From positions 1 through 64,000 of the forward strand of contig JADBYK010000003.1 in the NCBI GenBank assembly GCA_020403045.1: a stretch of DNA of 64,000 bases. The letters are read 5' to 3'. The notes beneath the pieces are model-generated. The model did not search any database. It was not told where the DNA came from and was given only the letters and a program-made list of their open reading frames with translations. This DNA is from Cytophagales bacterium. GTDB lineage: Bacteria > Bacteroidota > Bacteroidia > Cytophagales > Cyclobacteriaceae. Shown here piece after piece: positions 246-36,711 of this stretch (the first letter of the stretch is position 1; each line of letters starts with the position of its first letter). The position numbers and the translations under genes are program-made.

Positions 246-263
246 TGGAAACTGGTATCCAAA

Positions 264-299
264 AAAAAATCGCCACCCCCTTCGAGGCAGCGATTTTTT
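264..299. terminator. Bidirectional rho-independent terminator of tuf
   Basis: AAAAAATCGC (264-273) is the exact complement of GCGATTTTTT (290-299). The A/T ends give a U-tract in both directions. It lies 20 bp past the tuf stop on the minus strand and also closes the structured region on the plus strand. Confidence 0.8.
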
Positions 300-318
300 A
301 AATCAATCCTGAAAAATC

Positions 319-1506
319 TTAGTCTAAGATTTCAGTCACCTGACCTGACCCTACAGTGCGGCCACCTTCGCGGATAGCGAAACGAAGACCTTTCTCCATA
401 GCGATTTTATTGATCAATGTTACTTCAATCGACACGTTATCACCAGGCATAACCATTTCTACACCGGCAGGAAGCATACACTCACCTGTAACATCTGTAG
501 TACGGAAATAGAACTGAGGACGGTATTTATTAAAGAAAGGAGTATGACGTCCACCTTCTTCTTTAGACAACACGTATACTTCAGCCTTGAATTTAGCATG
601 AGGAGTCACTGAGTTTGGCTTGCAAATAACCATACCACGGCAGATTTGCTCCTTTTCAATACCACGCAACAACAAACCAACGTTGTCACCAGCTTCACCT
701 CTATCAAGGATTTTGCGGAACATTTCCACACCTGTGATGGTAGAAGTCAAGTTTTCAGCACCCATTCCAAGGATTTGAACTGGGTCACCAGTTTTGATGA
801 TACCACGCTCGATACGGCCAGTAGCAACTGTACCACGACCAGTGATTGAGAATACATCTTCCACAGGCATCAAGAAATCTTTGTCAATCAAGCGAATAGG
901 GATAGGAATGAAGTTATCCACCGCATCCATCAACTCCTCTACTTTTGCAACCCATTTTGCTTCACCATTCAATGCACCTAATGCAGAGCCACGGATCACA
1001 GGCATTGTATCGCCAGGGAAGCTATATGATGACATTAATTCACGAACTTCCATTTCAACCAGGTCGAGCAATTCGCCATCGTCAACCAAATCAACTTTGT
1101 TCATAAATACAACAAGTGCAGGTACACCTACCTGACGAGCCAAAAGAATATGCTCGCGAGTTTGCGGCATAGGGCCGTCAGTAGCGGCTACTACAAGAAT
1201 AGCTCCATCCATCTGTGCAGCACCAGTAACCATGTTTTTCACATAGTCAGCGTGACCTGGACAGTCTACGTGAGCGTAGTGTCTTTTGTCAGTTGCGTAC
1301 TCAACGTGTGATGTGTTGATGGTGATACCTCTTTCCTTTTCTTCAGGAGCATTGTCGATTGAAGAGAAGTCACGAACTGCAGCAAGCCCTTTTTTAGAAA
1401 GTACTTGTGTAATTGCCGCTGTAAGAGTGGTTTTACCGTGGTCAACGTGACCAATAGTACCAATGTTTACGTGCGGTTTCGAGCGGTCAAAATTTTCCTT
1501 TGCCAT
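319..1506 (-). CDS. tuf: Elongation factor Tu
   Basis: EF-Tu is the GTPase that brings aminoacyl-tRNA to the ribosomal A site. The 395-aa product has full family length. It shows the G1 motif GHVDHGKT (residues 19-26), the switch II motif DCPGHADY near residue 81 and NKVD near 136, followed by the two beta-barrel domains up to a typical C-terminus. It is the last gene of a tRNA-Tyr/Gly/Thr-tuf transcription unit read from a strong promoter at 2248-2278. A lone -7-like element, TATGTTTG at 1596-1589 (minus), may add a closer start site. A bidirectional terminator follows. The usual secE-nusG neighbours would lie outside the window or be separated by the structured region. Confidence 0.98.
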
Positions 1507-1745
1507 ATTGAAATCTAATTAAAGTTTAAAAGTGTATAAATTATTAAAATAGTTACTATTCTAAGCTTCTTTTACAAAGCATACACCCCAAACATATTAA
1601 GCCTTTCGAATAAGGGTTATTCGTTGAATTACTGACACCTAACTAAATGGTCGCTACCCACTGGTGCCAAGCAATTCTGATTCATTAAAAATGTCAATCC
1701 TAAAACCGTTTCAGATCGTCTTCTGAAACTCTCATTCTAACTTCG

Positions 1746-1817
<72 letters not shown>

Positions 1818-1822
1818 TTGTA

Positions 1823-1890
1823 GCCGTTGTTGGTTGTTAGTCTGTCGTTATTCGAAATGAGAACAACGAATAACGAATAACAAACAACGA
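1823..1890. repeat. Intergenic imperfect palindrome of the GTTGTTCGT/ACGAATAAC family
   Basis: The spacer between tRNA-Gly and tRNA-Thr is built from the words CGTTGTT and AACAACG / CGAATAAC facing each other. The same vocabulary fills the spacers at 10067-10140, 55548-55605, 55905-56015 and 57100-57178. It would form a hairpin in the transcript. The function is unknown. Confidence 0.5.
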
Positions 1891-1894
1891 TCTG

Positions 1895-1967
1895 AGCGGG
1901 AGACGAGATTCGAACTCGCGACCTATAGCTTGGAAGGCTATCGCTCTACCAACTGAGCTACTCCCGC
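1895..1967 (-). tRNA. tRNA-Gly(TCC)
   Basis: The minus strand reads acceptor GCGGGAG/CTCCCGC, anticodon stem TAGC/GCTA with loop CTTCCAA (anticodon TCC), and T arm CGAGTTCGAATCTCG. The discriminator is U and CCA is not encoded. It lies between tRNA-Tyr and tRNA-Thr in the tuf operon. Confidence 0.95.
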
Positions 1968-2063
1968 AATTCGATTTTAGATTGTTGATTTATGATTTTT
2001 TGATTCAATGGCATCTCACCTAAAATCTTAAATCACAAATCTCAAAATCCTAAATCGCTTTCG

Positions 2064-2146
2064 TGGGGAGAACAGGATTCGAACCTGTGAAGACATAAGT
2101 CAACAGATTTACAGTCTGTCCTCGTTGGCCGCTTGAGTATCTCCCC
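2064..2146 (-). tRNA. tRNA-Tyr(GTA)
   Basis: This 83-nt class II tRNA with a long variable arm has acceptor GGGGAGA/TCTCCCC, anticodon stem ACAGA/TCTGT with loop CTGTAAA (anticodon GTA), and T arm ACAGGTTCGAATCCTGT. It is the first gene after the promoter at 2248-2278. Confidence 0.95.
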
Positions 2147-2247
2147 CAACGATTGTTAAATTTTCTAAGAACGATTGAAAAAAGCCTGCAATCCGTTTAA
2201 TTCAAGCTTTTTACCCGAAATTGGCTTTCACCTAAAAAACGGGAACG

Positions 2248-2278
2248 CAAAATTATACGGTTTTTTGGTTTAGACAAA
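2248..2278 (-). promoter_or_regulatory. Bacteroidetes-type promoter of the tRNA-tuf operon
   Basis: On the minus strand TTTG (2278-2275) is followed after exactly 19 nt by TAATTTTG (2255-2248), a perfect match to the -33/-7 consensus TTTG-N19-TAnnTTTG of the Bacteroidetes primary sigma factor. Transcription would start near 2243, about 100 nt before tRNA-Tyr. Confidence 0.8.
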
Positions 2279-2323
2279 CCTTTGGGAGAAGGTTCTACAT
2301 TAATTTTAGTGTAAGGCTGGAAG

Positions 2324-2432
2324 CCGCAAGCTACAAGCACAAGCTAATTTGTGTAATAAACAAACTTTGAACTCAGAATCTGAAATATGGGATGAAGGCC
2401 TTTGAGTACTCAAAACAGCTAGTAGCTTGTGG
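2324..2432. repeat. Intergenic inverted repeat (CAAGCTAC family)
   Basis: CCGCAAGCTAC (2324-2334) faces GTAGCTTGTGG (2422-2432), with more GCTTG/CAAGC words nearby. The region lies between the tRNA promoter and the end of the DUF721 gene. It may act as a weak hairpin terminator for recF-DUF721, but there is no T-tract. Confidence 0.4.
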
Positions 2433-2468
2433 CCTGAAGCTTGGAGCCTAAGTCTGTTTCACCATGAT

Positions 2469-2774
2469 CTACATAACCACCATCTCCTTCACTACATCCT
2501 TTCCAAACTCCTTTTGAAGGATTTCGATAATTTGCCCCTTATGAAGATTCAAATCATTTTTCATTGCTGGAGAATCCAGTTCCACGAAAAGTACTTTTCC
2601 CCTTATATATAGTTTTTTGGTCCGTTTGGCAACGGGCTTACCTGCCAACCGCTCCCAGGAATTCAACAAATTGGCTTCGTCAAATTTGCCTTTAATGTGA
2701 TAACGGTTGAGTAATTGCTGAATGGCCTGGCCAATATGCTGGGTGTTGCCCTGTTCGCTTGATGATTTAGCCAT
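2469..2774 (-). CDS. DUF721 (DciA-like) protein
   Basis: This small DUF721-family protein is often encoded next to recF. Some family members (DciA) help load the replicative helicase. The region SWERLAGKPVAKRTKK and the following FVELDSPAMKNDL form the conserved KH-like core. I start it at the ATG encoding MAKSSSEQGN (about 101 aa), which overlaps the recF stop by 8 bp. An in-frame upstream ATG at 2795 would add seven residues. The overlap with recF argues for translational coupling. The replication role is inferred from the family, not seen here. Confidence 0.8.
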   Translation of the reverse strand: MAKSSSEQGNTQHIGQAIQQLLNRYHIKGKFDEANLLNSWERLAGKPVAKRTKKLYIRGKVLFVELDSPAMKNDLNLHKGQIIEILQKEFGKDVVKEMVVM

Positions 2775-23092: not shown

Positions 23093-25986
23093 GCATTACA
23101 CCTTATCACGCTAAATATTTTGCCTATGAACTCACTAAACGTAGTTCATCAGATAGTATGCAAAAACTTGCTTCTACTTTAGTAGATGCACAAGTTGATT
23201 TAAACCCCCATCAGGTAGAAGCTGCTTTATTTGCTTTTCGTTCGCCATTGTCAAAAGGTGCAATATTAGCCGATGAAGTTGGTTTAGGTAAAACAATTGA
23301 AGCAGCATTAGTAATATCTCAAAAGTGGGCAGAAAGAAAAAGAAAAATAATTATCATAACCCCTGCAAATCTCCGCAAACAGTGGTCTCAGGAACTACAA
23401 GATAAATTCTTTCTTTCATCAGTAATACTCGAAGCAAAATCATTTAATGATTTCGTTAAGAAAGGAAACTTAAACCCATTTGACCAGCCGGAAATAATAA
23501 TTTGCTCATACCAGTTTGCAAGAACCAAAGAACCCTATTTAAAATCCATAGGTTGGGATTTAGCAGTAATAGATGAAGCCCACAGATTAAGAAATGTCTA
23601 TAAAGCAGGTAATAAAATTGCCAAATCAATTAAGGAGGCTTTAAATGATGCTCCTAAAATTCTTTTGACAGCAACCCCATTGCAGAATACACTGTTAGAG
23701 TTATATGGCTTAGTAAGCATAATTGATGACTATTCTTTTGGCGACTTAAAAAGTTTCAAAACACAATACAGCAGAGTAACAAGCACAGCAGATGCCGAAG
23801 CTTTCACCGAATTAAAAGAGAGATTAAAACCAATTTGTAAACGAACTCTCAGACGGCAGGTTTTAGAGTATATCCGTTATACAAACAGAATTGCATTGGT
23901 TGAAGAATTTTATCCAACAGACGAAGAACAGCGTTTGTATGATATGGTTACAGATTATTTGCAAGCTGAAAATTTGTATGCTTTACCTGCAAGTCAACGA
24001 AAACTGATGACGCTGATATTAAGAAGGCTTTTAGCTTCCTCAACTTTTGCAATTTCAGGCACACTCGAAGCATTAGGCTCTAAACTGAACAATATCATTA
24101 CAAAGAGTAACGTAACCAATACAGAGGAAATAATTGCAGACAATTTTGAAACCTTTGATGAATTGAAAGACGAGTGGGATGAAGATGAGGTAGAAGAAAA
24201 AGAAGAAAAGGTTTATACCAGCGAGGATTTAGAAAACATAAAATCCGAAATACAATCACTAAAGGAGTTTGAAACACTTGCCAAATCCATTACTAAAAAC
24301 TCAAAAGGTGAAAAGCTCTTTACAGCCCTTGATAAAGGGTTTAAGGAAATGGATAGATTAAAAGCTCCTAAAAAAGCAATCATATTCACAGAAAGTACAA
24401 GAACTCAATTATATCTCCGAAATATTTTAGAAGCCAGAGGATACGCAGGTAAAGTAGTTCTGTTCAATGGTTCTAATACAGACCCGAAATCAAGGGAAAT
24501 TTATTCGGCTTGGGCTGCAAAGTATAAAGATACAGACCGTGCAACTGGTTCAAGGAGTGCTGATATGAGGGCTGCATTAGTTGACTACTTCAGAGAAGAA
24601 GCAACTATTATGATAGCCACAGAAGCAGCAGCAGAAGGAATAAACTTGCAGTTCTGTTCCATGATTATCAATTATGATATGCCGTGGAACCCACAACGCA
24701 TTGAACAAAGAATAGGTAGATGTCACCGCTACGGTCAGAAATATGATGTAGTAGTTATAAATTTCTTAAACAAGGCAAATGCAGCAGATGTTAGAGTTTA
24801 TGAATTACTCGATGAAAAATTTAAGCTTTTTAATGTTGTATTTGGAGCAAGCGATGATGTTTTAGGTGATAGAGATGAATTACTTGGTAGTATAGAAAAT
24901 GGTATTGATTTTGAAAAAAGAATTGCCAAAATTTATCAAGAGTGCAGAACTACAGAGCAAATTGATTTAGCCTTTAATGAATTAAGGGATGAATTGGAGG
25001 GGAATATCTCAAATGCCTTACAACATACAAGGGAGCAACTTTTAGAAAATTTCGATGAAGAGGTACACGAGAAATTAAGAATAAACCTGCAAGAGAGTAA
25101 GGAGTACCTTTCTAAATATGAAACTTGGCTATGGAATATTACTCAATACTTTTTATCAACTAATGCAGAGTTTTCCTCTGATGAACATTCTTTTCGTTTA
25201 TTGAACAATCCTTTCCCTGATGTTAAAATACATCCTGGTCCATATCGTATTGGTAAAAATATTGACGATGCTAATGTTTACCGTATTGGCCACCCTTTAG
25301 CCCAAAAAATTATTGACACCTGTAAGTCAAGGAAATTAGAGGAGTTTGAACTCATATTTGATTATTCCAATGCAGTCAAAAATATTGCAGCTATTGAAGG
25401 CTTTGTGGGTCAGTCCGGCTATATGATGGGCAACGTTCTAAGTATAACCTCATTTGAATTAGAAGAATTTATACAGTTATGTGGTATCACCGAAAATGGT
25501 ACCATGTTAGATAAACAGCAATGTGAAAGGTTCTTTTCACTCCCTGCAACTATTAACAGCTCCATCATTGAAGTACCAACAAATGTTTCCTTGAAATTGG
25601 CAGAGCAAATTCGTTCACATCGTTTAAGCACCTTAGATGAAATTGGACAACGGAATGCTGTCTATTTTGAAAACGAATTAGAGAAATTAGACCATTGGGG
25701 CGAAGACCGCAGAAACTCATTAAAAGTAACGCTGAAAGATTTGGATCTTGAAATTAAGGAGGTAAAAAAACAATCTCGTTTAGCACCCAATTTGCCCGAT
25801 AAATTAAAACTTGAAAAACAACGGAAGAAGTTAGAAAATGAAAGAGATACTGCATGGAAAGAATATGATGGTGCAGCAAAAGAAATTGAACAGAACAAAG
25901 ACAGATTGATTGACCAGGTTGAGCAACGCTTAAAACAAAATCTGCATGAAGAACCTTTGTTTTTAATTAAATGGAAACTTATTTAA
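23089..25986 (+). CDS. SNF2/RapA-like helicase of the defence operon
   Basis: The 965-aa protein has a SNF2-type superfamily 2 core. The N-terminal part shows LNPHQVEAALFAF, Walker A ADEVGLGKT (61-69), motif II DEAH (162-165) and motif III LLTATPLQN. The helicase C half has IIFTESTRTQLYLR, MIATEAAAEGINLQ and motif VI RIEQRIGRCHRYGQ. A coiled coil of about 100 residues precedes the C-terminus. Similar SNF2 proteins serve as the motor in several defence systems (DISARM, Hma and others). The frame overlaps both neighbours. Substrate is probably invading dsDNA or stalled polymerase complexes. Confidence 0.9.
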   Translation: MSITPYHAKYFAYELTKRSSSDSMQKLASTLVDAQVDLNPHQVEAALFAFRSPLSKGAILADEVGLGKTIEAALVISQKWAERKRKIIIITPANLRKQWSQELQDKFFLSSVILEAKSFNDFVKKGNLNPFDQPEIIICSYQFARTKEPYLKSIGWDLAVIDEAHRLRNVYKAGNKIAKSIKEALNDAPKILLTATPLQNTLLELYGLVSIIDDYSFGDLKSFKTQYSRVTSTADAEAFTELKERLKPICKRTLRRQVLEYIRYTNRIALVEEFYPTDEEQRLYDMVTDYLQAENLYALPASQRKLMTLILRRLLASSTFAISGTLEALGSKLNNIITKSNVTNTEEIIADNFETFDELKDEWDEDEVEEKEEKVYTSEDLENIKSEIQSLKEFETLAKSITKNSKGEKLFTALDKGFKEMDRLKAPKKAIIFTESTRTQLYLRNILEARGYAGKVVLFNGSNTDPKSREIYSAWAAKYKDTDRATGSRSADMRAALVDYFREEATIMIATEAAAEGINLQFCSMIINYDMPWNPQRIEQRIGRCHRYGQKYDVVVINFLNKANAADVRVYELLDEKFKLFNVVFGASDDVLGDRDELLGSIENGIDFEKRIAKIYQECRTTEQIDLAFNELRDELEGNISNALQHTREQLLENFDEEVHEKLRINLQESKEYLSKYETWLWNITQYFLSTNAEFSSDEHSFRLLNNPFPDVKIHPGPYRIGKNIDDANVYRIGHPLAQKIIDTCKSRKLEEFELIFDYSNAVKNIAAIEGFVGQSGYMMGNVLSITSFELEEFIQLCGITENGTMLDKQQCERFFSLPATINSSIIEVPTNVSLKLAEQIRSHRLSTLDEIGQRNAVYFENELEKLDHWGEDRRNSLKVTLKDLDLEIKEVKKQSRLAPNLPDKLKLEKQRKKLENERDTAWKEYDGAAKEIEQNKDRLIDQVEQRLKQNLHEEPLFLIKWKLI

Positions 25987-25994
25987 TCTACGAT

Positions 25995-26192
25995 ATGAGC
26001 AAGAGCAACACAGAATTAGCAAAAATAATAGATGAAAAATTGAAGGCAGCTGGCTTAATCAATGATACTGAAACTCAATTGGTGATTAAATTGGCAAAAG
26101 GCTCATTAAAGGATGTGGATTGGAAATTAGCATTTGAAGAAGTTTTAAATAAACCTGATGCAGAAAAAATAGAAACAGATGAAGCTAAATAA
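25995..26192 (+). CDS. Small acidic protein of the defence operon
   Basis: I take the ATG at 25995 (MSKSNTELAKIIDEKLKAAG), giving 65 aa. An earlier ATG at 25971 overlaps the helicase end. It is acidic and helical with no known motif. It is sandwiched between the helicase and ATPase genes and overlaps the latter by 14 bp, so it is surely translated as part of the set. It may bridge or regulate the two larger proteins. DUF4391-type small proteins occupy this place in some related loci, but I see no such domain. Confidence 0.6.
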   Translation: MSKSNTELAKIIDEKLKAAGLINDTETQLVIKLAKGSLKDVDWKLAFEEVLNKPDAEKIETDEAK

Positions 26193-30436: not shown

Positions 30437-33334
30437 ATGAAATTAAAATTTGATAGCACACAGCCGTTTCAGTTGCAAGCAGTCAGCAGTTTTGTTGAAT
30501 TGTTTGATGGGCAACCTTTGCAACAAGGCGACTACTCAGTAGAAATAAATACATCCACACAAGCAGGACAAAGCAGCATTTTTCAATCTGAATTAGGTTT
30601 AGGAAATAACCTTACTTTAAGTAATGAAGTAATTTTAAAAAACCTGCACACCATACAAGAGAGAAACGATTTAGATGCTACACCAGAAAAGGAATTTGAA
30701 AAGAACGGTTTAAATTTTTCTGTAGAAATGGAAACAGGTACAGGTAAAACCTATGTGTATCTGAGAACCATTTTTGAATTATCACAGAAGTATGGTTTCA
30801 AAAAATTTATTATCGTAGTTCCAAGTGTTGCAATCAGAGAAGGCACAGTAAAAAACATTGAAATAACTGAGGAACATTTTAAGGCATTATACAACAACAT
30901 AGAGTTTGAATACTTTGTGTATGATAGTAAAAAAGCAAACCGCCTTCGGCAGTTCGCCACAAGCAACCAGCTGCAAATAATGATAATTAATATTGATGCT
31001 TTCAACAAAGACACCAATATTTTCAATCAAGAACGCAATCAATTAAATGGTTTCAGTCCAAAAGAATTTATCAATGCTGTAAAGCCTTTTGTATTAATTG
31101 ACGAACCCCAAAGTGTTGATAATACAACCAAAGCACAGGAGGCAATAAAATCACTTAACCCCATTTGCATATTTCGTTTTTCTGCTACGCATAAAAACCC
31201 CTACAATCTCATCTATAAACTTGACCCTATAAAGGCGTATGAATTACGTTTAGTAAAACAAATAGTAGTAGCATCAGTAGTTGGTGCAAATGCTCAAAAT
31301 GATGCTTATGTAAAGCTATTAGAGGTAAATAACAAAGCAGGAATAAAAGCTAAAATCCGTATTCAGGTGCAAGGCATAGGAGCAGTAAATGAAATGGATA
31401 TTTGGGTAAAACAAAATGCTGATTTATTTACACTCTCCAATGAAAGGGCAGCCTATCAAAATGGTTTTGAAGTATTAGACATCAGTGCAGAGCCAGGTAA
31501 TGAATTTATTGATTTCACTTCAGGCAGATTATACATAGGGCAAGAAAGAGGTGGCATTACAGATGATTTGATAGAAATACAAATTAAGAACACTATCAAA
31601 AAGCATTTGGATAAAGAACTACAATTAAAGGGCAGAGGTATAAAAGTATTGAGTTTGTTTTTTGTAGATAAGGTTGCCAATTACAGAACCTATGATGAAG
31701 AAGGTAAACCAGCACCGGGCAAATTTGCAGAACTTTTTGAAAAGCATTATTTAGAATTTATTAAACTATCACAATACAAAGAGTTAGACATTTTTCCTGT
31801 CGAAAAAATCCATGATGGGTATTTCTCAGCCGATAAAAAGGGAGTATTAAAAGACACCAATGGCAGCACCCAAGCAGATGATGATACCTATGCTAAAATC
31901 ATGCGAAACAAAGAACAATTGCTTTCATTAGATGAACCCTTGAAATTTATCTTCTCACATTCTGCATTAAGGGAAGGTTGGGATAATCCGAATGTGTTTC
32001 AAATTTGTGTTTTAAGAGAAGTAGGCAGCACCAAAGAAAGAAGACAAACATTGGGCAGGGGTTTAAGATTGCCAGTAAACAAAGATGGTGAAAGAGTAAA
32101 AGACGATAGCATAAATAAACTCACTGTAATTGCAAGAGAAAGCTATGCTGATTTTGCAAATGGCTTACAGAAAGAATATGAAGAAGATTGCGGAGTAACT
32201 TTTGGCAAAGTTCCAAAAATTGCATTTGCAAAAATTACAGAAACAGTAGGTGAAGAAGAAACTCCAATTGGCAGAACATCAAGTGAAAATATTTGGGCTG
32301 AATTAGTTGCTAAAGGTTTCATTGATCCTATTGGTAAAATACAGCCCTCGTTCAATCCATCTAAAGAAGGCTTTTCATTGGGGTTATCAGAAAAATTTGC
32401 AGAGAAAGAAAGCGAAATTATATCAGTACTTCAATCCTATCAGTTAGAAAGACACATCAAAAAAGATGAAGAGCCAAAGCGTTTAAAAATCAACAAGCAA
32501 ATATTTCTTGACCCTGAATTTGAAAACCTATGGAATAAGATAAAACACCGCACCACTTACCAAGTAGATTACTCCACAGATGTTTTAATTGCTAACGCAA
32601 TTAAGGCCATTAAGGAAATGGAAAAAATAGAACCGGTAAAAGTGGCTTATAGAGAAGATTTAATTGCAGTTGAAAAAAAGGGAGTAACAACAACCAATAC
32701 AAAAGCCAACGAAATAAAGTTAGAATACTCAGGCAATTTGCCTGATATTCTTGCATACCTGCAAAAGGAAACAGAACTGACAAGGAGTTCCTTAGTTACA
32801 ATTCTTTCAGATAGCAACCGCCTTGCTGAGTTTGCAATCAACCCTCAAAAATTTATGGATGCTGTTGCTTCCATCATAAACCGTGAGTTACATAGGTTAA
32901 TGATTGACGGTATAAAGTATGAGAAACTAACTACAGGGCATACAGAGTGGAGTATGCAACTATTCAGAGAAGAAGAATTGAAAGACTATTTTGAGCAATG
33001 TTTAGCAGTTAACAATTCAGTATTTGACCGTGTAATTTATGATAGTGAAATAGAGAGAAAGTTTGCAGAAGATTTGGATAAGAGAGAAGATATAAAATTG
33101 TTTGTCAAGCTACCTTCTTTCTTTAAAGTAGAAACTCCAATAGGTACTTATAACCCCGATTGGGCAATAGTAAAACACAACGACAATACCATTTATTTAG
33201 TCAGAGAAACCAAAAGCACCAAAAACTTTGAAAAGCTAAGAAATTCAGAAGCGGACAAAATAAAATGTGGTAGAAAACACTTTAATGCCATCGGAGCAGA
33301 TTTTGATGTAGTAACAAGTTCAACAGAAGTATAA
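30437..33334 (+). CDS. Type III-like restriction helicase-nuclease (Res)
   Basis: The 965-aa protein has an SF2 helicase core: Walker A METGTGKT (near 97-105), motif II DEPQ near 221 in place of DEAH, FRFSATHKNP, and motif VI region LGRGLRLPVN. The C-terminal nuclease domain shows YNPDWAIV and LVRETKST near residues 905-935, the PD...ExK residues of type III Res subunits. It forms the Mod-Res pair with the preceding gene. Combined with SNF2 helicase and SMC-like ATPase, the set is close to the helicase-methylase-ATPase (Hma) loci described as defence systems. Confidence 0.9.
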   Translation: MKLKFDSTQPFQLQAVSSFVELFDGQPLQQGDYSVEINTSTQAGQSSIFQSELGLGNNLTLSNEVILKNLHTIQERNDLDATPEKEFEKNGLNFSVEMETGTGKTYVYLRTIFELSQKYGFKKFIIVVPSVAIREGTVKNIEITEEHFKALYNNIEFEYFVYDSKKANRLRQFATSNQLQIMIINIDAFNKDTNIFNQERNQLNGFSPKEFINAVKPFVLIDEPQSVDNTTKAQEAIKSLNPICIFRFSATHKNPYNLIYKLDPIKAYELRLVKQIVVASVVGANAQNDAYVKLLEVNNKAGIKAKIRIQVQGIGAVNEMDIWVKQNADLFTLSNERAAYQNGFEVLDISAEPGNEFIDFTSGRLYIGQERGGITDDLIEIQIKNTIKKHLDKELQLKGRGIKVLSLFFVDKVANYRTYDEEGKPAPGKFAELFEKHYLEFIKLSQYKELDIFPVEKIHDGYFSADKKGVLKDTNGSTQADDDTYAKIMRNKEQLLSLDEPLKFIFSHSALREGWDNPNVFQICVLREVGSTKERRQTLGRGLRLPVNKDGERVKDDSINKLTVIARESYADFANGLQKEYEEDCGVTFGKVPKIAFAKITETVGEEETPIGRTSSENIWAELVAKGFIDPIGKIQPSFNPSKEGFSLGLSEKFAEKESEIISVLQSYQLERHIKKDEEPKRLKINKQIFLDPEFENLWNKIKHRTTYQVDYSTDVLIANAIKAIKEMEKIEPVKVAYREDLIAVEKKGVTTTNTKANEIKLEYSGNLPDILAYLQKETELTRSSLVTILSDSNRLAEFAINPQKFMDAVASIINRELHRLMIDGIKYEKLTTGHTEWSMQLFREEELKDYFEQCLAVNNSVFDRVIYDSEIERKFAEDLDKREDIKLFVKLPSFFKVETPIGTYNPDWAIVKHNDNTIYLVRETKSTKNFEKLRNSEADKIKCGRKHFNAIGADFDVVTSSTEV

Positions 33335-33516
33335 TGAAAAAAGCATCAAGATATTCACCCATACAACGTATTGAACGAAACCCTCGGTATTCGTTCTCCT
33401 GTATGATATGTTTGATGTTTTCACCCAACCATACTAAGATTTACCGCTGGTGGCAAATTATTGGTTTACTGGGCTTTATTGTCTTTATGGGATATATGGT
33501 TTCAATTTCAAGGTAA
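33334..33516 (+). CDS. 60-aa single-span membrane protein
   Basis: The ATG overlaps the Res stop (TAATG), which couples translation. The N-terminal 40 residues are basic with two Cys (FSCMICLMF). The C-terminal 20 residues form a membrane span (WWQIIGLLGFIVFMGYMV). The next gene begins 3 bp after its stop. I recognise no family. A membrane-acting effector linked to the cyclase-like gene is an attractive idea, but it could also be a chance frame filling the gap. Confidence 0.4.
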   Translation: MKKASRYSPIQRIERNPRYSFSCMICLMFSPNHTKIYRWWQIIGLLGFIVFMGYMVSISR

Positions 33517-33519
33517 ATT

Positions 33520-34386
33520 ATGGAGTTAGAATATAAATACACAAATAGGGCTGTTGCATTTTTAGATGTATTAGGCTTTCAAAATAAGCTTGAAGAGTTT
33601 GAAAGAGAAGCTATTGAATATTATAACACATCAAATGCTGAAGAAACAGCCGGAGAATTTGAAGAAGATAATAGCGAGTTAAACAGTCCAATTTACTATT
33701 CTCAAAAAGCAAGTGACTTCATAAATACCTTCAATTCAGCAATTTCAAAACTTGATAGTGATAAATTCAGTTATTACTTATTTAGTGATAACATTTGTAT
33801 CACAGCAAAAAGTACTGGCGATAATGGGGAAAATTCACTTGTTGAATTATTACTTATTATTTCTGAATTATACTTCGAGTTTATTCAGCAAGGTTATTTT
33901 CTTCGAGGGGGCATTGACTTTGGTTTGTTTATAGATAAATCTTCAATAGCACTTGGTGTTCCTCTTGCAACAGCTTATAAAATGGAAAGCACACAAGCAG
34001 TTTTCCCAAGAATAGTTCTATCAAAGAATTTTATTAAGCAATTAGAAGACTATTCTGTAGATAATGTAAATGGTTATTCATCAATATTAACTTCAAGCCT
34101 TATCAAAGTAAGTTGTGACATTCAATACTTGAATGTTTTTAATCACATTTTTAAAGTTGATGATAAGGAATATTTTTTTGAACGGTATAGCTTCAACATA
34201 AATCAAAACCTTCTAAGTTCAGCACAAAAGGAGAATATTTTTTTAAAGTACAAATGGTTAGCTACTGAATTTAATTCATTTATCGAAACATATACAAGCT
34301 CTCTTGCATTCTATGATGAAAACTTTGAGGCAACAGATGAGTATTTACAAATTGTTAAACAACTAAAAGTCGAATATGGACAATAA
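33520..34386 (+). CDS. Protein with class III nucleotide-cyclase-like motifs
   Basis: The 288-aa protein starts RAVAFLDVLGF (Asp16), like the FxDxxGF metal site of class III cyclases. YYLFSDNICIT (Asp90) matches the second metal Asp strand. FLRGGIDFG (129-135) resembles R.GIH.G, and GVPLATAYKME (146-156) resembles G..VN.A.R.E, but with Ala and Lys replacing the catalytic Asn and Arg. So the fold looks like a cyclase while base or activity may differ. No GGDEF or membrane part is seen. It overlaps the beta-family gene by 11 bp and follows the defence operon directly. Confidence 0.55.
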   Translation: MELEYKYTNRAVAFLDVLGFQNKLEEFEREAIEYYNTSNAEETAGEFEEDNSELNSPIYYSQKASDFINTFNSAISKLDSDKFSYYLFSDNICITAKSTGDNGENSLVELLLIISELYFEFIQQGYFLRGGIDFGLFIDKSSIALGVPLATAYKMESTQAVFPRIVLSKNFIKQLEDYSVDNVNGYSSILTSSLIKVSCDIQYLNVFNHIFKVDDKEYFFERYSFNINQNLLSSAQKENIFLKYKWLATEFNSFIETYTSSLAFYDENFEATDEYLQIVKQLKVEYGQ

Positions 34387-35485
34387 TCTTATATATATGC
34401 CAACATTTAGGGTTAGGCAACAAGAGACCATCGTATTGAAAAGTTTCAATTTTGGAGAACATATGTACCCTCTTATTGAAATTGTCAAAGAATTTGATAG
34501 GTCAAGAAAAGATGATACTCAAAAAACATTTGAGGAAATACATATAGAACTGATTGAAGCAATTCAGTCAACTTTTGTTTTTATTGATTTACCAATTTAT
34601 TTAAAACAGTCTGGTGCTGTAAAGGATGAAGTAGTTGCTTTTTCATATAGTATAAGTAACAATCTTGAAAAGAGGTGTGAGTATTTAAATAAATTGTCCA
34701 TTCATAGAAGTAAGGCTATACCAGTTATTTCTTCTTTTCTTTCTAAAACTGGCGATACTAATTCAATTCAAAATCAGTTTGAATTGTTACAGCCCAATTT
34801 TGACCGTATAGCATTCCGTTTATTTCCTTTAACCTTTAAAGATGATTTCAGTATAGTATCTACATTGGCTCGTCCTAATGACTACATAATAATGGATTTA
34901 GATACTATAAATCCATTTCCAAAAAGTCCTCCATTGCGTCCTCTTATTGCAGAGTTAAAATCTTTCCACACTTGTTGTAAAATATTACTTCGCAGTGCAA
35001 TTAATACAGAGATACAAAATGTGAAATTAGACCACGGTCAAGTAGTTTACGAAGCTGACAATAGCCAAATTGATATTGATATACTTAATGAGTTCGGTGT
35101 AAATGCTACTGGTGATTTTGTAGGTATAAAAAAAGACGACCTAACGGCAGGGGGCACAATTAGTCCTGGTTTTATATATTATGATGCAACTGAAAATCAA
35201 TACTATGGTTATCGTGCCGCTGTAAAGGAGTTAATACAATTTGAGAATTTAATTGTACCTGCAATTATTTCGTCCGATGCAACGCAAAGAATGTTAGCAA
35301 CAAATCCTCCTTTTGTGGGTGCAGAAAACCCAGGATATAATACTTTGCTTAGTATTAGCTCGGGTGCAGAGAGTGGTAAAAGTCAGGCTAAATTTAAGAA
35401 GATAGCGATGGAGCACTATTTATATTGTATGCGATTAAAAATTGAAAATGGTGAGTTACATCAAACAAATGTTCAGCAGCCGTAG
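34376..35485 (+). CDS. Beta family protein (T4 beta-protein-like)
   Basis: The 369-aa protein fits the beta family (PF14350): YMPTFRVRQQETIVLKSF near the start, then YPLIEIVKEFDR, with RLFPLTF and DYIIMDLDTI in the middle. The pattern Y.P...R..E...L......PLIEI is the family hallmark. Beta proteins are common in phage-defence neighbourhoods and are often encoded with sce7726-type proteins, which is exactly the arrangement here. Biochemical role is unknown. It is co-translated with the cyclase-like gene and convergent with the nuclease gene (13-bp overlap of ends). Confidence 0.75.
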   Translation: MDNNLIYMPTFRVRQQETIVLKSFNFGEHMYPLIEIVKEFDRSRKDDTQKTFEEIHIELIEAIQSTFVFIDLPIYLKQSGAVKDEVVAFSYSISNNLEKRCEYLNKLSIHRSKAIPVISSFLSKTGDTNSIQNQFELLQPNFDRIAFRLFPLTFKDDFSIVSTLARPNDYIIMDLDTINPFPKSPPLRPLIAELKSFHTCCKILLRSAINTEIQNVKLDHGQVVYEADNSQIDIDILNEFGVNATGDFVGIKKDDLTAGGTISPGFIYYDATENQYYGYRAAVKELIQFENLIVPAIISSDATQRMLATNPPFVGAENPGYNTLLSISSGAESGKSQAKFKKIAMEHYLYCMRLKIENGELHQTNVQQP

Positions 35486-36213
35486 ATTATTTCTGGTTTA
35501 ACGTTGGTATTAAAAAAGAATTGTAAATCTATTGGCAATATAACTTCCCAGTGGTTTTGGATAAATGACCATCTTTTGTTATATCTTGCTTTTAGTGCTT
35601 GTTTTAGCATTAAGTTTATTTGAGCAGCGTTGTAATTATTCAAAATTTGCTCATTGTCAATGGTCCCAAAAAACTTTTGTTGTTCCTTTTTATTCATCAA
35701 TGACAACTGTTCTTTAGCATTTAACTTTGGGCTATATTTAGCTTCTCGGTAAATTACCTTTTTGCTTTTTTCATAATACCAAACACCATAGTATTCCGGT
35801 ATTAATTCAATTACTTTTTCCAGATGTGATTTGTCAATAACAACAGTGTTGTATTCAAATACATCACCATAATCATCAACTTGTTTTTTTAATCTATTTA
35901 ATGTGTCAATTTTAGACTTAACTTCAAAAGATTTCGTATCTCCATTTATCACTAAAAAATCAGTTCTACTCGTTTTTGCTTTTACCTCAAATGCTGCAAC
36001 ATATTTTTTCGTAACAAACTCTTTTGCAAGTTGATATTTTAGTATCGCCTCGCAATCGTAGTTTTTAAAAGCAATATCATTGATAGTTTTAGCCAGCTCA
36101 AATTTGCTAAACTTTTGGAACTTGTCAGTTTGAAAAAATTCAGCAAGCAAGTCCCTAAGCTGATTGGTGTAGCTTAGGGTATTGTATGACCTAACAAGTG
36201 CTGAATAATCCAT
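35473..36213 (-). CDS. sce7726 family protein (putative PD-(D/E)XK nuclease)
   Basis: Starting at ATG 36213 (MDYSALVRSYNTLSYTNQ) the protein has 246 aa. The sequence RTDFLVINGDTKSFEVKSK has the Asp and the ExK of a restriction-like nuclease core, followed by LNRLKKQVDDYGDVF, a helix typical of the sce7726 family. The earlier frame from 36282 overlaps the divergent promoters. It is convergent with the beta-family gene, its usual genomic partner. Cleavage of foreign DNA is the likely role, by inference. Confidence 0.78.
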   Translation of the reverse strand: MDYSALVRSYNTLSYTNQLRDLLAEFFQTDKFQKFSKFELAKTINDIAFKNYDCEAILKYQLAKEFVTKKYVAAFEVKAKTSRTDFLVINGDTKSFEVKSKIDTLNRLKKQVDDYGDVFEYNTVVIDKSHLEKVIELIPEYYGVWYYEKSKKVIYREAKYSPKLNAKEQLSLMNKKEQQKFFGTIDNEQILNNYNAAQINLMLKQALKARYNKRWSFIQNHWEVILPIDLQFFFNTNVKPEIIYGC

Positions 36214-36236
36214 TCTTTTAATTTGTTTTCCACCTA

Positions 36237-36274
36237 CAAAGGTAATCAATAAAACAAAATAATTACTACTTTTG
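36237..36274. promoter_or_regulatory. Divergent -7 elements
   Basis: TACCTTTG on the minus strand (36244-36237) serves the sce7726 gene with a leader of about 20 nt. TACTTTTG on the plus strand (36267-36274), followed by GCATCCCAATT as in the promoter at 5145, points into the apparently non-coding DNA to the right. Neither has a TTG at 19 nt. Confidence 0.45.
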
Positions 36275-36711
36275 CATCCCAATTCTAAACCCTATATTGT
36301 TCATTAAGTTTCATTTTATACAATCTGGGCATTCCCTTTCAGGTCGGGCTTTCCGTTACAATCTTTTGCTAAGGCAAAAGGATTTTCACTTCAATCCCTA
36401 ATGCATAAAGAAGCGGTGTTCGTTCCTCACATGTAGTTTGATACCCCCCCGAACAAACCTCACAGAAATACGGCTTGTGCAGTTTCCCAAACACAAGGCT
36501 TACGCTGCACTGCACCTATGGTATTGCAGTCAGTTTTTAACTGTCATATTTTTTGTGGCTATGCTCCCCAAGCATTTGGCACATTGCCTGTTCCGCTTTG
36601 CTCCTCAGCCAAAGAGCCAAGCCAACACACAGCATAGCAACAAAAAAACGCTACACTCCAACCACCACCACCGTTCCGCTTATGCCAGTATAAAAACTGC
36701 CTGAAGCTAAA

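What the first reader, a model, noticed from the sequence alone, without database searches (positions are those of the whole stretch)
33334..35485. Cyclase-like protein + beta-family protein (+ small membrane protein) appended to the defence operon
Seen: the 288-aa protein has AFLDVLGF, FSDN, LRGGIDFG and GVPLATAYKME in the order and spacing of class III nucleotide cyclase motifs, yet the catalytic Asn and Arg positions read Ala and Lys. It overlaps the beta-family gene by 11 bp and follows a 60-aa single-span membrane protein. Known: Pycsar uses class III-like cyclases with membrane or TIR effectors. Inference: a possible nucleotide-signalling abortive module of new composition.
Basis: partly seen in the sequence, partly recalled or inferred. 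Interest (0 to 1): 0.74.

Follow-up and report, generated by a model that had tools for sequence, protein, structure and literature searches.

The report
Cyclase-like gene joins beta-cII defence module
Next to a bacterial restriction system sits a three-gene module related to a phage-satellite antiviral system, but with a nucleotide-cyclase-like protein at the position where that system carries its toxin; what the protein does has not been tested.

Summary
CYC belongs to an unnamed family (phrog_23933) whose profile matches class III nucleotide cyclases (95%, E 1.9e-8); GGDEF, Beta and cII controls give about 0.2%. Both metal-type aspartates are kept in 51 of 51 members. The catalytic Asn is in 0 of 32, the Arg in 2 of 32.

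The 60-aa ORF is not conserved. A same-genus relative has the restriction operon without the module. A convergent sce7726/cII gene, 35473-36213 (minus), was missed. Beta and cII are homologues of P4 beta and cII; P4 gop-beta-cII is a demonstrated anti-phage system (PMC9122126). CYC overlaps Beta by 11 bp at 4 of 5 loci with window-type Beta; the fifth has only a Beta remnant.

Best reading: a new variant of beta-cII defence with a cyclase-like partner in Gop's position. Toxicity, signalling and defence are inferred; no structure was obtained.

The parts
33520..34386 (+). CYC: 288-aa class III nucleotide cyclase-like protein (phrog_23933 family); Asp16 and Asp90 kept, catalytic Asn/Arg positions Ala150 and Lys154; stands where P4 has gop
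34376..35485 (+). BETA: 369-aa Beta_protein family (PF14350), homologue of P4 beta; start overlaps the CYC stop by 11 bp
35473..36213 (-). SCE/cII: 246-aa sce7726-family protein, homologue of P4 cII, convergent, 13-bp overlap with BETA. Start taken as the ATG of MDYSAL at 36213 (ORF listing extends to a TTG at 36282). Invariant D84, E96-x-K98, D102, R106, Q110, E176 (numbered without the initial Met), a PD-(D/E)xK-like pattern
34376..34386 (.). 11-bp CYC stop/BETA start overlap, same length in window, L002, L094 and L220
35473..35485 (.). Tail-to-tail overlap of BETA and SCE; Beta lies opposite and downstream in 71 of 80 viral-contig sce7726 loci, with real overlap in 37 of 38 representative pairs

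Best explanation
The locus is a mobile three-gene defence module of the beta-cII type: CYC and BETA overlap and are probably translationally coupled, and SCE (cII) is convergent with BETA. A class III cyclase-like protein occupies the partner position that carries the toxic protein Gop in satellite P4 and the toxic Xre-peptidase in PD-lambda-2. Most likely it acts as a toxin-antitoxin-like abortive-infection system: CYC binds metal and nucleotide through Asp16/Asp90 and is held in check in the uninfected cell; infection releases it, and it then harms the cell by converting or depleting nucleotides or by making a nucleotide signal. BETA restrains CYC or senses the infection, and SCE, with its nuclease-like motif, acts with BETA as regulator or executor. 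Shown here: homology of BETA and SCE to P4 beta and cII, the gene arrangement, the cyclase-like domain, conservation of the metal ligands and loss of Asn/Arg, and independence of the restriction operon. Inferred: translational coupling, toxicity, nucleotide chemistry, the roles of BETA and SCE, mobility, and defence.
For: P4 record X51522: gop 247-648 (+), beta 651-1718 (+), cII 1746-2540 (-), the same order and orientation as CYC, BETA, SCE. P4 beta against the Beta profile 99.5%, E 1.1e-22. P4 cII against the SCE profile 99.3%, E 3.1e-20, and against the window SCE 26%, E 4e-8. Gop-beta-cII protects against lambda and P1 and Gop was shown toxic without beta (PMC9122126, passages). PD-lambda-2C, related to a P4 antitoxin, is required for defence (PMC9519451, passages). 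CYC-BETA with an 11-bp overlap at 4 loci, with SCE at all 3 whose contig continues. The three unbroken CYCs of these loci form one clade, 100/100. Class III match with controls. Asp16 and Asp90 in 51 of 51. Restriction genes directly upstream in the window and in L002.
Against: No experiment and no structure. PADLOC's beta model does not match the window BETA, and P4 beta against it alone gives nothing significant by BLASTP (E 1.3). CYC is not homologous to Gop (0.1%), so toxicity is carried over from position only. In PD-lambda-2 the Beta-type protein is not required to neutralise the toxin, which speaks against BETA as a simple antitoxin. In G320 the CYC gene has an in-frame stop while BETA and SCE are open. 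In G641 SCE is intact with a Beta remnant and no CYC. Most CYC relatives stand alone: 0 of 45 examined loci have BETA or SCE in the fetched flanks, so CYC's activity does not generally depend on Beta.
Confidence: 0.58

Rival explanations
1. CYC is an active nucleotide cyclase or nucleotidyltransferase that makes a signal read by BETA, which controls the nuclease-like SCE, either activating it on infection or holding it off until phage enzymes remove the signal (as mCpol does for 2TM-beta in Panoptes).
For: Metal aspartates in 51 of 51 and Arg129 in 50 of 51 although Asn/Arg are lost, which suggests altered rather than absent chemistry; defence precedents with cyclase-type enzymes (PMC11224242 passages; PMC12657230 outline and abstract).
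Against: No known nucleotide-binding domain found in BETA or SCE; 0 of 80 viral sce7726 loci, 71 of them with Beta, have CYC, so Beta and cII do not generally need such a signal.
Confidence: 0.22
2. CYC is a catalytically dead cyclase fold used as a nucleotide- or partner-binding sensor; BETA and cII are the working pair.
For: Catalytic Asn absent in 32 of 32 and Arg absent in 30 of 32; Beta/cII pairs are widespread without CYC.
Against: Strict conservation of both metal ligands, which a dead sensor would not obviously need.
Confidence: 0.15
3. The genes are unrelated cargo of a defence island that lie together by chance.
For: The surrounding region is a restriction island and the module is absent from a same-genus relative.
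Against: Same order and same 11-bp overlap at 4 loci in different genera and beside different neighbours; one clade of CYC.
Confidence: 0.05

Closest known systems
Gop-beta-cII anti-phage system of satellite P4
   Same: Beta-family gene with a convergent cII/sce7726 gene, and a partner gene directly upstream of beta on the same strand
   Different: The partner is a class III cyclase-like 288-aa protein, not the 133-aa Gop; Beta and cII are distant; Bacteroidota genome beside a restriction system; BETA and SCE overlap at their ends, whereas P4 beta and cII are 27 bases apart
PD-lambda-2
   Same: Has a Beta-type third component needed for defence; four Beta loci of the phylum found here have helix-turn-helix and M78-peptidase domains upstream
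   Different: The window has neither HigB-like nor Xre-peptidase genes next to BETA
Pycsar (PycC with PycTM or PycTIR)
   Same: Cyclase-type domain with two metal aspartates in a defence neighbourhood
   Different: Class III catalytic Asn/Arg not kept; no cyclic-nucleotide receptor effector found; no PADLOC match for CYC
Class III adenylate/guanylate cyclases (PF00211)
   Same: Profile-level homology over 145 columns in register, metal aspartates
   Different: Asn and Arg positions replaced; other conserved features: RGG, AYxLE, PR and a C-terminal KxxW region
Panoptes (mCpol with 2TM-beta)
   Same: Cyclase-type enzyme next to an effector, as a possible logic
   Different: mCpol is Cas10-related (PMC12657230); the CYC profile does not match a GGDEF profile (0.2%); no direct comparison with mCpol was made

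Membership tests
Gop-beta-cII | Beta-family protein | tested here: met
   PF14350 E 2.1e-16; P4 beta vs profile 99.5%. The narrower PADLOC 'beta' model gave no hit
Gop-beta-cII | cII/sce7726 homologue convergent with beta | tested here: met
   NF033832 E 7.4e-30, PADLOC cll 4.6e-16, P4 cII 26% E 4e-8, coordinates
Gop-beta-cII | Gop upstream of beta | tested here: not met
   Gop vs CYC profile 0.1%; Gop vs the 60-aa ORF no alignment
Gop-beta-cII | Partner toxicity and anti-phage activity | not testable with these tools
   needs experiments
PD-lambda-2 | HigB-like and Xre-peptidase genes with the Beta-type C protein | tested here: not met
   No such domain in the 60-aa ORF or CYC
Pycsar | PycC-type pyrimidine cyclase | tested here: inconclusive
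   Metal aspartates present but no PADLOC match for CYC at E<=1; no direct comparison with PycC sequences; activity untested
Pycsar | Effector with cyclic-nucleotide-binding domain and TM or TIR | tested here: not met
   Pfam, NCBIfam and PADLOC scans of BETA, SCE and the 60-aa ORF
Class III nucleotide cyclase | Cyclase domain homology and two metal aspartates | tested here: met
   by profile only, no structure
Class III nucleotide cyclase | Catalytic Asn and Arg | tested here: not met
   Ala150 and Lys154 in the window; Asn 0 of 32, Arg 2 of 32
PD-(D/E)xK nucleases (SCE) | D...ExK motif in a nuclease fold | tested here: inconclusive
   D84, E96, K98 invariant in 15 of 15; no Pfam family matched by more than 1 of 15 members; no significant PDB profile hit

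The most novel reading that the evidence does not exclude
CYC represents a cyclase-derived enzyme family with a rebuilt active site (the two aspartates with Arg129, and in most members Tyr153 and Glu156) and new nucleotide chemistry, and in this clade it has been coupled to Beta-cII to make a nucleotide-controlled version of the P4-type defence, a signalling branch of gop-beta-cII.
Probability: 0.25. Interest if true: 0.8.

Novelty: new variant of a known kind. Interest (0 to 1): 0.62.

Why it matters
P4 gop-beta-cII is a demonstrated anti-phage system, but the passages read here give no mechanism for it beyond a likely toxin-antitoxin pair. Finding Beta-cII with different upstream partners (Gop, Xre-peptidase, or a cyclase-like protein) suggests a general control core for different partners. 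It also gives a mechanistic handle, metal-dependent nucleotide chemistry with two candidate aspartates, for asking what that core senses and restrains. The CYC family itself (no functional name in PHROGs, Pfam, NCBIfam or PADLOC; in 23 of 395 sampled genomes of the phylum, 22 plasmid records and 21 viral-contig loci) is an uncharacterised branch of class III-like proteins.

Tried and rejected
Rejected: (1) The 60-aa ORF as a component: found in the window's own genome and in the matching contig L001 only; none in L002, L094, L220, L221 or L235; four weak matches in 38 other genomes (E 0.0046-0.0098). (2) The SLT_beta Pfam line for CYC (E 0.034, 14.6 bits against a cut-off of 27, 1 of 32 members): noise, not followed. 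(3) Pycsar and PD-lambda-2 membership (see table). (4) A constant partner for lone CYCs: none seen by eye in the neighbour listing. (5) dN/dS: by NG86 synonymous change was saturated in 6 of 7 comparisons; the seventh (SCE, window against L094) gave 0.067 at dS 2.9, itself near saturation; YN00 failed in all 7. (6) PDB sequence searches: CYC alone matched only eIF4E-type chains at E 0.86 or worse; profile A1 hit a cyclase, 5d0g, at E 0.69, profile A6 nothing; Beta and SCE had no significant hit. (7) Phage records: no CYC or Beta match in 50,697 records by tblastn; no plasmid match for Beta or for the three-gene DNA. (8) Window-type Beta in viral contigs: none. (9) The S. thermophilus paper found by text search uses 'beta protein' in another sense. 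(10) Promoter scan: 12 sites against 15.2 expected, uninformative.

Rows left out: the 32-row CYC alignment A9 left out L007, L039, L049, L051, L057, L101, L103, L104, L110, L113, L115-L119, repeats and the broken G320 copy; the recount took all 51 distinct ORFs of at least 200 aa (L220 not among them). In that wider set Tyr153 is in 40 of 51 and Glu156 in 43 of 51, less strict than in A9; Arg at the catalytic position is in 4 of 51; for Asn the printed list covers 50 of 51 rows, none of them Asn. The cyclase alignment A8 used 14 of the 16 matches (L212 and L214 left out). The 45 lone-CYC loci leave out five weaker places (L032, L033, L034, L036, L037), and some flanks are short.

Literature: PMC9122126, PMC9519451, PMC11224242, PMC13414232, PMC9394441, PMC11514479 and PMC11291487 were seen as passages; PMC12657230 as outline and abstract; others as search listings only. 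Ghisotti et al. 1990 is recalled and seen cited in PMC9122126. That the CYC-Beta-cII composition is not in print rests on searches of an open-access library; listings 101, 102 and 124 were cut (15 of 30, 20 of 777, 12 of 16 papers shown).
Full report
What is there. BETA is Pfam Beta_protein (E 2.1e-16); CYC has no family above its cut-off in Pfam and none in NCBIfam or PADLOC. A further gene, convergent with BETA and overlapping its 3' end by 13 bp, is an sce7726-family protein (NCBIfam E 7.4e-30; PADLOC 'cll' 4.6e-16). Upstream lie a DrmD-like helicase, a small ORF, a RecF/SMC-type ATPase and a type III methylase and nuclease.

The unit. In Cyclobacterium (L002) the same CYC (73%), BETA (72%) and convergent sce7726 gene (69%) follow type I restriction genes (subunit R, specificity and HsdM by Pfam, with DarT and Macro genes between). 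In G518, CYC and BETA recur up to the contig end. The CYC/BETA overlap is 11 bp at these 4 loci (junctions). A fifth locus with window-type Beta, G641, has only a Beta remnant with stops, an intact sce7726 gene and no CYC. A same-genus genome, G009, has the five-gene restriction operon in the same order at 64-72% DNA identity; similarity stops at the end of the nuclease gene, and profile searches find no CYC, Beta or sce7726 in the 7.1 kb that follow. The module is therefore separate from the operon. No 60-aa relative was found at any of these loci.

What BETA and SCE are. In 395 genomes of the phylum, Beta_protein was found in 7 and sce7726 in 25. All 7 Beta genomes have an sce7726 gene tail-to-tail with Beta; in G428 Beta is in two pieces. 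G320's Beta was missed by the Pfam model, so 7 is a lower bound. In viral contigs, 80 sce7726 loci were kept of 95 found. 71 of the 80 have Beta on the opposite strand at the 3' side; of the 9 without, 4 stop at the end of the sequence held. Among 38 representatives, clustered at 85% identity from 66 long Betas, 37 overlap at their 3' ends by 6-122 nt. One such pair is in 126 of 5,426 E. coli genomes, annotated beta family and sce7726 family protein in the 10 rows listed. Satellite P4 carries gop, beta and convergent cII. P4 beta and cII match the two profiles at 99.5% and 99.3%. PADLOC's beta and PD-Lambda-2_C models match 5 of 5 other Beta proteins scanned but not the window's. Gop-beta-cII defends against lambda and P1, and Gop was shown toxic without beta (PMC9122126, passages). 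In PD-lambda-2 the third component, related to a P4 antitoxin, is needed for defence though not to neutralise the toxin (PMC9519451, passages).

Partners of Beta. Eight Beta loci of the phylum sample were looked at (the 7 and G320). Two have CYC (window, G320). Four have helix-turn-helix and M78-peptidase domains upstream, like PD-lambda-2B (L095 and L100 as fusions; L098 and L099 as two genes, the L098 helix-turn-helix just under its cut-off). One has an N6-methylase-type gene (L096). For L097 no close same-strand upstream gene was seen. In viral contigs no constant upstream partner was seen by eye.

SCE has seven invariant residues in 15 of 15 sequences, D84, E96, K98, D102, R106, Q110 and E176 (numbered without the initial Met), a PD-(D/E)xK-like pattern. 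Only the motif supports this; Pfam and PDB profile searches do not.

What CYC is. All 32 aligned members match phrog_23933, of unknown function. The 32-sequence profile against 14 class III cyclases from relatives gives 95.4%, E 1.9e-8, over 145 columns. The alignment pairs Asp16 and Asp90 with the two metal aspartates and Ala150 and Lys154 with the catalytic Asn and Arg (the roles of these residues are recalled, except the PycC metal aspartates, PMC11224242 passages). Controls: Beta and SCE profiles 0.2%; GGDEF 0.2%, while class III against GGDEF gives 89.5%; best of 100 shuffles scores 25.2 against 59.6; reversed profile 0.1%. Without the window and L002 rows the match is unchanged (95.5%); with these two alone it is 0.9%, so the assignment rests on family membership. 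Conservation in the 32: Asp16, Asp90 and Arg129 32 of 32; Tyr153, Glu156, Pro163 and Lys243 31 of 32; catalytic Asn 0 of 32; Arg 2 of 32. In a wider set of 51 distinct ORFs: Asp16 and Asp90 51 of 51, Arg129 50 of 51, Tyr153 40, Glu156 43, Arg at the catalytic position 4. The three unbroken CYCs of Beta loci are one clade (100/100) on a long stem; many deeper branches of the tree are weak. Lone CYC loci: 45 examined, 0 with BETA and 0 with SCE in the flanks held.

Mechanism. By position, order and homology of two of its three genes the locus is built like gop-beta-cII: an upstream partner tied to beta, with convergent cII. The most likely reading is an abortive-infection, toxin-antitoxin-like module in which the partner is a cyclase-derived metal-dependent enzyme. 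Whether CYC is toxic, what it makes or binds, and whether BETA restrains it are inferences. The main alternative is a nucleotide signal between CYC and BETA/SCE.

Verdict. Not a member of gop-beta-cII in the strict sense, because Gop was tested and not found, but a variant built on the same two-gene core. Not Pycsar by the effector test. Not a complete class III catalytic site.

Noticed in passing
G641, L221:7554-8900: A window-type sce7726 gene is intact beside a helix-turn-helix gene while Beta survives only as a remnant of about 78 aa with stops, so cII can persist without Beta.
   Followed up: partly
L094:5934-7337: In G320 a SocA/Panacea-domain gene (E 7.8e-25) lies directly upstream of the sce7726 gene on the same strand.
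   Followed up: partly
L047, L119, L111, L112, L008: Several lone CYC relatives sit beside what look like HsdS/HsdM or DUF262-type genes (by eye from the listing) or beside an annotated Dsr1 sirtuin.
   Followed up: no
window 36153-36179: A 10-pair hairpin with a weak T tail on the + strand lies inside the 5' part of the convergent SCE gene; 3 such sites found in 33200-36600 against 1.4 expected.
   Followed up: no
G000:C110:45012-47588: A second, 42-54% identical type III nuclease-like gene exists elsewhere in the same genome.
   Followed up: no
window 25971-26192: A 73-aa ORF between the DrmD-like helicase and the ATPase has a 67-aa ORF at the same place in G009, so it may be a small gene of the restriction operon; the two were not aligned.
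   Followed up: no
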